Below the pieces are notes generated by a model, which worked only from the letters and a program-made list of their open reading frames with translations, was not told the DNA's origin and searched no databases. Positions 8,378 through 9,895 of a stretch of 13,876 nucleotides of DNA are shown here, one piece after another. Each line of letters begins with the position of its first letter. The stretch's first letter is position 1. Position numbers and translations under genes: made by a program. Source of the DNA: Candidatus Rokuibacteriota bacterium (GTDB lineage: Bacteria; JAUVQV01); contig JAUVQV010000004.1 of NCBI GenBank assembly GCA_030597995.1, positions 1 through 13,876 on the forward strand, read 5' to 3'.

Positions 8378-9133
8378 TCATCCGAAGCGCCCGGTGATGT
8401 AATCCTCCGTCTTCTTGTCGCCGGGGTTCGTAAAAAGAGTGGTGGTAGTATTGAACTCCATCAGCCGCCCGAGGTAGAAGAACCCGCACTCGTCCGAGAT
8501 TCTGGCGGCCTGTTGCATATTGTGGGTCACAATGGCGATGGTGTATTTCTTCTTCAGCTCCAGCATCAGCTCCTCGATGCGCATGGTGGCGATGGGATCG
8601 AGGGCCGAGCAGGGCTCATCCATGAGCAGGACCTCGGGTTCCACCGCCACCAGCCGTGCGATGCAAAGCCGCTGCTGCTGTTCGCTGGTCAGCGCCAGGG
8701 CGGAGGTTTTCAGCTTGTCCTTCAACTCCTCCCAGAGGTGCACCGCCCTGAGACTCCTCTCGACCGTACCTTCCAAAACGTCCCTCTTTGCTACCCCGTG
8801 CACCCTGAGGCCGTACACGACGTTGTCGAAAATGCTCAAGGGGAACGGGTTCGGCCGCTGGAACACCATCCCGACCTTCTTCCGCAGGAGGACCAGGTTC
8901 TGGCCGGGACGGTAGATGTCCTCCCCGTCCAGGAGGACCTCTCCTTCCACCCGGGTGCCATCCACGAGGTCATTCATTCGGTCCAGGGTCTTGAGGAACG
9001 TGGTCTTGCCGCACCCGGAGGGCCCGATAAAAGCGGTGATATTGTTGGGCAGGATTCTCAGGTCCACACCGATCAGGGCCTGGAAGTCCCCGTAGAAAAA
9101 GTTCAGCTTCCGGACTTCGACCTTGGGCCGCAT
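8378..9133 (-). CDS. pstB: Phosphate ABC transporter ATPase PstB, copy 1 (degenerate signature motif)
   Basis: ATPase subunit of the PstSCAB phosphate importer, 251 residues. Intact: Walker A GPSGCGKT (37-44), Q92 in VGMVFQRPNPFP, Walker B LLMDE (169-173) in the PstB-typical MDEPCSALDP, and H204 in VTHNMQQAARISD. The ABC signature, normally LSGGQQQR, is LTSEQQQR (148-155): both glycines are replaced, by Ser150 and Glu151; I checked the codons. The signature of one subunit closes the ATP site of its partner, so this copy should complete a poor site. ATG directly follows the stop of the second PstB gene (TAGATG) with a GGGAG ten bases upstream. It ends 23 bases before phoU. Identity is certain; the functional reading (half of a heterodimer) is inference. 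Confidence 0.95.
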   Translation of the reverse strand: MRPKVEVRKLNFFYGDFQALIGVDLRILPNNITAFIGPSGCGKTTFLKTLDRMNDLVDGTRVEGEVLLDGEDIYRPGQNLVLLRKKVGMVFQRPNPFPLSIFDNVVYGLRVHGVAKRDVLEGTVERSLRAVHLWEELKDKLKTSALALTSEQQQRLCIARLVAVEPEVLLMDEPCSALDPIATMRIEELMLELKKKYTIAIVTHNMQQAARISDECGFFYLGRLMEFNTTTTLFTNPGDKKTEDYITGRFG

Positions 9134-9895
9134 CTATCCGAATCTCCCGGAGATATAGTCGTCGGTGCGGCGGTCTTTTGGAACGGTGAAGACCTGCCGG
9201 GTCTTTCCGTACTCCACCATCTCGCCCATCAGGAAAAAGGCGGTGCGGTCCGAGACCCGCGCGGCCTGCTTGGTATTGTTGGTCACCAGGACAATGGTGT
9301 AGCGGCTCTTCAAATCACTCAGGGCCTCTTCGATCTTGAAAGTCGAGACCGGATCGAGGCCGGAACAGGGCTCGTCGAGGAGGATAACCTCGGGATCCAG
9401 GGCCAGGGTGCGGGCGATGCAGAGACGCTGCTGCTGCCCCCCGGAAAGCCGCAGGGCGGAATCCCCAAGGCGGTCCTTGACCTCGTCCCAGAGTACGGCG
9501 GATCGCAGACCGTATTCCACCAGCTCGTCCAGCTTCTTCCGGCTGCGGACGCCGTTCAGCTTGGGCCCGTAGGCGATGTTCTCATACACGCTCCGCGGCA
9601 GCGGCACGGGGATTTCAAAGACCATTCCCACTCTCCGCCGCAGGTGGTCCGGGTCGCAATCCCCGGAGTAGATGTCGAGACTATCCAGGAAAATCCTCCC
9701 CTCGTGCCTGGCCTTGTGGATCAGGTCCACCATCCGGTTCATGCTCCGCAGGAGCGTGCTCTTTCCGCTGCGCGAGGGACCAATGATGCCGAGGATCTCA
9801 TTTCTGGCGATCGAGAGGTTCACACCCTTCAGCGCGGCGGCTCCATCCGGATAGAAGAAGCTGAACCCCTCGACCAGGATTTTTCCCTCGGTCAA
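9134..9895 (-). CDS. pstB: Phosphate ABC transporter ATPase PstB, copy 2 (altered Q-loop and H-switch)
   Basis: A second PstB-type ATPase, 253 residues. Intact: signature LSGGQQQRLCIAR (150-162) and Walker B ILLDE (171-175). Altered: Walker A GPSRSGKS (39-46, Arg42 in place of the usual Gly), Q-loop glutamine is Glu94 (VGMVFEIPVPLP), and the switch histidine is Asn206 (VTNNTKQAARVSD). These changes are all on the nucleotide-holding face of its own site, whereas its signature stays good. Start is TTG at 9895 overlapping the pstA stop (TTGA), with GAGGAA just upstream; the frame is open farther back through pstA but without similarity. Its C-terminus (TDDYISGRFG) is nearly the same as that of copy 1, as expected for a tandem duplicate that diverged. 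Confidence 0.93.
   Translation of the reverse strand: MTEGKILVEGFSFFYPDGAAALKGVNLSIARNEILGIIGPSRSGKSTLLRSMNRMVDLIHKARHEGRIFLDSLDIYSGDCDPDHLRRRVGMVFEIPVPLPRSVYENIAYGPKLNGVRSRKKLDELVEYGLRSAVLWDEVKDRLGDSALRLSGGQQQRLCIARTLALDPEVILLDEPCSGLDPVSTFKIEEALSDLKSRYTIVLVTNNTKQAARVSDRTAFFLMGEMVEYGKTRQVFTVPKDRRTDDYISGRFG

What the first reader, a model, noticed from the sequence alone, without database searches (positions are those of the whole stretch)
8378..9895. Two adjacent PstB ATPases with complementary defects: predicted asymmetric heterodimer
Seen: PstB1 keeps Walker A, Q-loop Gln92 and switch His204 but its signature is LTSEQ. PstB2 keeps LSGGQ but has Glu94 in the Q-loop, Asn206 in the H-switch and Arg42 in Walker A. 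Known: ABC ATPases bind two ATP, each between the Walker A/Q/H side of one subunit and the signature of the other; heterodimeric exporters such as TAP1/TAP2, TM287/288 and CFTR concentrate all substitutions in one degenerate site. Inference: in a PstB1-PstB2 dimer site one (PstB1 core with PstB2 signature) is fully canonical and site two (PstB2 core with PstB1 signature) collects every defect. Neither homodimer would have a single canonical site. This would make the phosphate importer an obligate heterodimer with one main hydrolytic site, an arrangement I do not know to be described for PstB.
Basis: partly seen in the sequence, partly recalled or inferred. Interest (0 to 1): 0.85.

Follow-up and report, generated by a model that had tools for sequence, protein, structure and literature searches.

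The report
Lopsided two-part phosphate-pump motor
This bacterial phosphate importer appears to run on two different motor proteins whose altered parts all fall in one of the two ATP sites they share, and similar lopsided pairs occur in many distantly related bacteria, which makes it a new natural system for asking why such one-sided motors evolve.

Summary
Confirmed and extended. The window holds a pstS-pstC-pstA-pstB2-pstB1-phoU operon. PstB1 has an intact core (Walker A, Q92, E173, H204) but signature LTSEQ; PstB2 has LSGGQ but R42, E94 and N206. The pair is not a local oddity. In 326 genomes or records selected for PstB hits, 94 hold both a core-defective copy with intact signature and a core-intact copy with changed signature; 8 hold only one kind. 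Of 78 genomes with an H-switch His-to-Asn copy, 77 also hold the partner, 7 of them not adjacent; the 78th stops at a contig edge. Of 102 core-defective copies 99 keep the signature; of 102 signature-defective copies 99 keep the core. With motif columns removed, the 48 core-defective rows sampled form one lineage (SH-aLRT 96%). Best reading: an obligate PstB1-PstB2 heterodimer with one canonical and one degenerate ATP site, like yeast Pdr5, whose degenerate site also has an LxxEQ signature (PMC7756269). PstB2 keeps Walker A Lys and catalytic Glu, so site two may still bind ATP. Dimer formation and hydrolysis were not tested. Nine full-text searches showed no such description for PstB.

The parts
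8378..9133 (-). pstB1: PstB ATPase with intact core and degenerate signature
   Evidence: TIGR00972 376.8 bits
9134..9895 (-). pstB2: PstB ATPase with degenerate Q-loop and H-switch and intact LSGGQ (TTG start)
   Evidence: TIGR00972 345.2 bits; model
8678..8692 (-). PstB1 signature LTSEQ, residues 148-152 (site two)
   Evidence: aligned to LSGGQ
9002..9025 (-). PstB1 Walker A GPSGCGKT, residues 37-44 (site one)
8858..8860 (-). PstB1 Q-loop Gln92 (site one)
8615..8617 (-). PstB1 catalytic Glu173 (site one)
   Evidence: LLMDE at 169-173
8522..8524 (-). PstB1 H-switch His204 (site one)
9434..9448 (-). PstB2 signature LSGGQ, residues 150-154 (site one)
9758..9781 (-). PstB2 Walker A GPSRSGKS, residues 39-46 (Gly4 to Arg42, Lys45 kept; site two)
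9614..9616 (-). PstB2 Q-loop position Glu94 (site two)
9371..9373 (-). PstB2 catalytic Glu175, retained (site two)
   Evidence: invariant in the 18-row alignment
9278..9280 (-). PstB2 H-switch position Asn206 (site two)
   Evidence: invariant Asn
9892..10746 (-). pstA permease (start approximate)
   Evidence: Pfam BPD_transp_1
10728..11585 (-). pstC permease
   Evidence: Pfam BPD_transp_1
11582..12433 (-). pstS phosphate-binding protein
   Evidence: Pfam PBP_like_2
7665..8381 (-). phoU (ATGA overlap with the pstB1 stop; a later ATG start is possible)
   Evidence: TIGR02135 231.7 bits; Pfam PhoU; start read

Best explanation
PstB1 and PstB2 form one heterodimeric ATPase under the PstC-PstA channel. 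Site one (PstB1 Walker A, Q-loop, Walker B and H-switch facing the PstB2 LSGGQ) is fully canonical and does the main hydrolysis. Site two (the PstB2 core facing the PstB1 LTSEQ) carries every substitution; because Walker A Lys and the catalytic Glu remain, it probably binds ATP as a slow or non-hydrolysing clamp. Neither protein could form a fully canonical site with itself, so the heterodimer should be obligate. Shown: the sequences, their complementarity and their co-occurrence. Inferred: the physical dimer, its obligacy and which site hydrolyses.
For: Complementarity: of 102 distinct core-defective copies 99 keep an intact signature, of 102 signature-defective copies 99 keep an intact core; 271 copies are canonical in both. 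Not chosen by motif: 120 of 120 listed PstB1 hits keep Q and H and have a changed signature; 117 of 120 listed PstB2 hits have H-to-N with LSGGQ. All 78 H-to-N copies keep the signature and the catalytic Glu, 77 show the Walker A Lys (one lacks that stretch). Co-occurrence: 94 of 102 genomes with either type hold both; 77 of 78 for H-to-N copies, 70 adjacent and 7 not. With motif columns removed, the core-defective rows lie one change from all their partners. Site composition (core of one subunit, signature of the other) is established and stated in PMC7756269 (passages). PstB2 folds as a complete PstB. A B. subtilis structural survey lists PstBA and PstBB as the two ATPases of one transporter (PMC11466899, passages).
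Against: Three PstBs, each the only copy read in its genome, carry a Q-loop and a signature change in one protein. G007 and G008 hold only a Q-to-D PstB2-type copy. In G012 and G014 a Walker-dead PstB2 goes with a canonical LSGGQ copy. G017 and G853 have a changed signature (LDGGQ, LSIGQ) without a core-defective copy read. Five of 120 Endomicrobium-type PstB2 hits have MSVGQ or MSIGQ. 22 of the 94 genomes also hold a canonical third PstB among the copies read, which could offer other partners. In Enterococcus faecalis, whose two PstBs are both canonical, excess PstB2 replaces PstB1, so tandem copies as such need not be obligate partners (PMC12096839; abstract, passages, discussion). No physical evidence for the dimer. 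Genomes and regions were selected, and counts are not independent events.
Confidence: 0.85

Rival explanations
1. PstB1 works as a homodimer with a relaxed signature, and PstB2 is a non-catalytic regulator, for example a signalling partner of PhoU.
For: phoU is encoded next to the pair, and PMC12096839 cites interactions of PhoU with PstB (passage). PstB1 has the better family score.
Against: A pure regulator would not need an intact signature, yet 99 of 102 core-defective copies keep it. A PstB1 homodimer would have two degenerate signatures and would not explain why signature loss tracks the presence of a core-defective copy.
Confidence: 0.06
2. Site two is not degenerate but retuned: both sites hydrolyse ATP, the second by an altered geometry using Glu175 without the usual His and Gln.
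For: The catalytic Glu is kept in 78 of 78 H-to-N copies and the Walker A Lys in the 77 that show that stretch. A review reports H-loop mutants of the degenerate MRP1 site with little effect on transport (PMC7756269, passages).
Against: Loss of Q, H and LSGGQ in one site is the pattern of non-hydrolytic sites, and a side branch of the same PstB2 lineage loses Walker A Lys and catalytic Glu outright.
Confidence: 0.07
3. One paralogue is decaying after duplication, and the complementarity is chance plus shared ancestry.
For: The core-defective copies may be one lineage, so the events are not independent; five of 120 Endomicrobium-type PstB2 hits look further eroded.
Against: Open frames, gene order kept (PstB2 first in 69 of 70 adjacent cases, the other being a frame artefact), both genes kept when not adjacent (7 genomes), and 19 different aligned signature variants in the partners while all 78 H-to-N copies keep theirs.
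Confidence: 0.02

Closest known systems
Pdr5 (yeast asymmetric ABC exporter)
   Same: Substitutions gathered in one composite site, with an LxxEQ signature (LNVEQ) opposite a degenerate core (PMC7756269, passages). PstB1 has LTSEQ, relatives LTLEQ, LSLEQ, LTEEQ.
   Different: Pdr5 is one polypeptide and an exporter; its degenerate core also loses the Walker A Lys and catalytic Glu, which this PstB2 keeps.
TAP1/TAP2, TM287/288 and other heterodimeric exporters with a degenerate site
   Same: Two different ATPases, one canonical and one degenerate composite site (PMC7756269, passages, for TAP; TM287/288 from the abstract start of PMC5216877 in the listing).
   Different: Exporters with fused membrane domains (recalled); here separate ATPase subunits of a binding-protein-dependent importer.
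Tandem canonical PstB1/PstB2 of Enterococcus faecalis
   Same: Adjacent pstB genes in a pst-phoU operon, with unequal roles (PMC12096839).
   Different: [quoted passage not shown] PstB2 in excess replaces PstB1.
RbsA / NupO fused importer ATPases of Bacillus subtilis
   Same: Importer ATPases with one degenerate site (PMC11466899, passages).
   Different: Two ATPase domains fused in one chain, type II importers, not PstB.
DppD/DppF dipeptide importer ATPases
   Same: Importer ATPase of two separate, different subunits.
   Different: Both sites are active: either single catalytic mutant keeps ATPase (PMC12136057, passages).
E. coli PstB in PstSCAB, 9k3x, 9k3y, 9k3s
   Same: Closest solved relatives by sequence (PstB1 vs 9k3x 315.9 bits) and fold (PstB2 model TM 0.91-0.95).
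   Different: The 9k3x chain has LSGGQ and the switch His in the printed alignment; one PstB sequence is listed with two chains per entry.

Membership tests
PstB (TIGR00972) | Score above the curated cut-off (343.2 bits) | tested here: met
   PstB1 376.8, PstB2 345.2 (marginal)
PstB (TIGR00972) | Genomic context pstS-pstC-pstA-pstB-phoU | tested here: met
ABC ATPase pair with one degenerate site | Two non-identical ATPases encoded for one transporter | tested here: met
   Two pstB genes and one pstC-pstA set
ABC ATPase pair with one degenerate site | All motif substitutions fall in one composite site and the other is canonical | tested here: met
   for the window; for relatives
ABC ATPase pair with one degenerate site | Catalytic Glu lost in the degenerate site (common in exporters, not universal) | tested here: not met
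   Glu175 kept in the window; lost only in a side branch
ABC ATPase pair with one degenerate site | Physical heterodimer | not testable with these tools
   Only single chains can be modelled
ABC ATPase pair with one degenerate site | Hydrolysis mainly at one site | not testable with these tools
   Needs ATPase assays
Pdr5-type degenerate site | LxxEQ signature opposite the degenerate core | tested here: met
   LTSEQ; Pdr5 LNVEQ from PMC7756269
Pdr5-type degenerate site | Walker A Lys and catalytic Glu lost | tested here: not met
   Lys45 and Glu175 kept

The most novel reading that the evidence does not exclude
A whole lineage of bacterial phosphate importers became single-engine pumps. It is seen here in the phyla of seven reference genomes whose records are named Sedimentisphaerales, Elusimicrobia, Myxococcales, Deltaproteobacteria, Dehalococcoidia, Clostridiales and 'bacterium'. 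One ancient PstB2 lineage lost its Q-loop and then, in different branches, its H-switch or its Walker residues, while the partner PstB1 lost its signature step by step (LSGGQ, LSLGQ, LxxEQ). The dead site is selected for rather than tolerated: it fixes which subunit docks on PstA and makes uptake spend one ATP per phosphate, or hold an ATP-clamped state that PhoU can read.
Probability: 0.35. Interest if true: 0.85.

Novelty: new variant of a known kind. Interest (0 to 1): 0.68.

Why it matters
Degenerate ATP sites are studied mostly in exporters, where why they exist is unsettled. Here nature offers a graded series in one importer whose ATPases are separate proteins: fully canonical adjacent pairs (16 genomes), Q-loop-only pairs, Q/H/signature pairs, and Walker-dead copies. 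The order of loss and its effect on energy cost can therefore be tested, and wild-type, mixed and mutant dimers can be assembled at will. A named organism on a 1,588,979-base contig, Endomicrobium proavitum, carries the pair. It also warns that annotation as 'PstB' can hide a second, non-equivalent subunit.

Tried and rejected
Sequencing error or pseudogene: rejected, since the same kind of substitutions recurs in the listed relatives. R42 as a functional defect: weakened, because that position varies in the family. Column entropies: zero values at the core motif letters and at S-G-G-Q follow from how the groups were defined, so they are not used as evidence; the near-empty 'both defective' class is. 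Fisher's test on those copies (p = 8e-9) is not a fair probability because the copies are related. Chance pattern hits: G042 and G150 matched the EQ pattern, but their fetched regions hold no PstB. Four low-scoring hits to other ABC ATPases (in L050, L201, L397 and the window's own DppF-like gene) were dropped before the final counts. Two long-branch rows (G246, G261) and the three doubly altered copies were left out of the second tree. A recollection that Bacillus subtilis PstBB has a changed switch residue could not be checked and is not used. A second Bacillota search largely repeated and added little.

Full report
What is in the window. A minus-strand operon reads pstS (11582-12433), pstC, pstA, pstB2 (9134-9895), pstB1 (8378-9133), phoU. 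pstB2 starts at a TTG inside the pstA stop and its stop codon abuts the pstB1 ATG. Taking the standard composite geometry of ABC dimers (stated in PMC7756269, passages read), site one combines the PstB1 core with the PstB2 LSGGQ and is canonical; site two combines the PstB2 core (Arg42, Glu94, Asn206) with the PstB1 LTSEQ. PstB2 keeps Lys45 and Glu175. A model of PstB2 from an 18-row alignment (mean pLDDT 92.9, pTM 0.89) matches E. coli PstB in PstSCAB best (9k3s and 9k3x, rmsd 1.7 and 1.3), so the altered protein still folds as a PstB.

Is it more than chance? The 120 listed database hits to PstB1 (one is the window itself) all keep Q and H and all lack a canonical signature (commonest LSGEQ 50, LTGEQ 30, LPTEQ 19). 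Of the 120 listed hits to PstB2 (one is the window itself), 117 have H-to-N with LSGGQ and Ala (67), Asp (49) or Glu (1, the window) in the Q-loop; 3 are fully canonical (each listed 120 of 8000 scored). By my reading of the two tables at least fourteen longest-contig lengths, besides the window's, recur in both lists, as expected if the genes lie on the same contigs; a shared length is not proof.

Survey. Genomes of the phyla of seven reference genomes were searched: 149 (two patterns), 112, 79, 79, 118, 151 and 149 (profile); one search overlapped. Only part of the matches was read: up to 30 loci per profile search plus 97 requested regions, many chosen because they looked paired or exceptional. 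In the profile searches by phylum at most 17 to 34 first-look candidates per genome were scored, so a missing copy is never proof of absence. PstB copies from 326 genomes or records were classified. 94 hold both complementary types, 5 only a core-defective copy, 3 only a signature-defective copy, 224 neither (these include the three genomes with a doubly altered copy). The five are G007 and G008 (Q-to-D copies alone), G012 and G014 (Walker-dead PstB2, with a canonical copy) and G162 (gene 456 bases from a contig edge). The three are G017 (LDGGQ), G853 (LSIGQ) and G184 (copy at a contig edge). Per distinct copy: 99 core-defective with intact signature, 99 core-intact with changed signature, 271 fully canonical, 3 with both (G233, G231, G197). 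22 of the 94 also hold a canonical third copy among those read, and sixteen of the 326 hold an adjacent pair that is fully canonical.

The H-to-N type. 78 genomes have it; 77 also hold the partner, 70 adjacent and 7 not. Of the seven, G302 and G327 carry both genes on one contig some kilobases apart, and G339, G347, G333, G284 and G354 on different contigs of draft genomes. In the adjacent cases PstB2 comes first in 69 of 70; the other, L002, is an artefact of stop-to-stop frames that begin four bases apart. Retention of both genes after they parted argues against mere hitch-hiking. In the Elusimicrobia-named phylum 42 of 79 genomes had a profile match, not all of this type; one carrier is Endomicrobium proavitum (L170; name from P0242).

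Constraint. Of 102 core-defective copies 99 keep the signature, and of 102 signature-defective copies 99 keep the core. All 78 H-to-N copies keep the signature and the catalytic Glu, and 77 show the Walker A Lys, the last lacking that stretch in the alignment; their Q-loop letter is Ala 63, Pro 11, Ser 2, Glu 1 and one gap. The partners show 29 different aligned signatures, the fourth letter being Glu in 74, Gly in 18 and Asp in 7 of 99. This is what an obligate two-protein site predicts. The copies are related, so no probability is attached.

History. On a tree without the motif columns (135 rows, quick method) the 48 core-defective rows (32 H-to-N, 10 Q-only, 6 Walker-dead) lie on one side of a branch with 96% SH-aLRT, and 32 of 33 EQ-type rows on one side of another (93%). 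Core-defective copies and their partners need one change on the tree. Eight partner rows group with four second genes of canonical adjacent pairs (93%); the partners of G700, G787 and G803 stand elsewhere, and canonical first and second genes are scattered otherwise (8 changes each). A stepwise path is suggested: canonical pair, then Q-loop loss with LSLGQ, then H-to-N with LxxEQ, and separately loss of Walker A Lys and catalytic Glu. Fast-evolving degenerate copies may attract each other, so one origin is suggested, not proven. An earlier tree put nine H-to-N rows of a subtype (Walker B ending DEF, D-loop SIAID or SIAVD) apart from the rest at lower support.

Coupling to the membrane part. 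In operons with an H-to-N PstB2 the PstA coupling loop departs from that of single canonical loci, while the PstC loop is tighter (89 and 173 PstA frames, 71 and 94 PstC frames, some from overlapping loci). This suggests PstB2 sits on PstA, but the comparison is not controlled for kinship.

Known or new? Searches of a 5.39-million-paper open library listed no paper whose title or abstract start describes an asymmetric PstB pair; listed papers other than those cited were not opened, except PMC4242082 (outline and abstract). The one study of tandem PstB found (PMC12096839; [quoted passage not shown] Most subscription papers are not covered. The nearest mechanism is Pdr5, whose degenerate site also pairs LxxEQ with a broken core (PMC7756269, passages). 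It works like a degenerate-site ABC pair; as a family member it is PstB.

Noticed in passing
PstA and PstC of loci with an H-to-N PstB2, e.g. window 9892-11585: The PstA coupling loop departs from the canonical sequence (Ala positions become Ser or Val) while the PstC loop is more invariant than in single-PstB loci, hinting that PstB2 docks on PstA.
   Followed up: partly
L209-L214, L289-L291, L296, L297: A more extreme subtype: PstB2 with Walker B LCLDEF or LLLDEF, D-loop SIAID or SIAVD and VTNL, paired with PstB1 signatures such as LQLEQQQK or LSLEARQK.
   Followed up: partly
L030, L033, L036, L398, L399: PstB2 copies that lose the Walker A Lys (GPANSGTT, GPSNSGIS, GPANSGIT) and the catalytic Glu (to Arg); the other copies read range from canonical LSGGQ to LTLGA, LAPGQ and LAVEQ.
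   Followed up: partly
L153, L216, L218: PstBs read as the only copy in their genome that carry both a Q-loop change and a changed signature (LGPGQ, LPEGM, LPYGL); both sites of a homodimer would be altered.
   Followed up: no
P0300, P0303, P0313, P0317, P0325: Five of 120 Endomicrobium-type PstB2 hits have MSVGQ or MSIGQ, a signature change in the core-defective copy; possibly erosion in symbionts.
   Followed up: no
L339, L342, L346, L349: The LSLGQ PstB1-type gene lies some kilobases from its Q-loop-defective partner and on the opposite strand, yet both are kept in the locus.
   Followed up: partly
window 2400-4401, plus strand: A DppD/DppF-like ATPase gene pair; the listed start at 2590 is internal, since the same frame carries GESGCGKT upstream.
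   Followed up: partly
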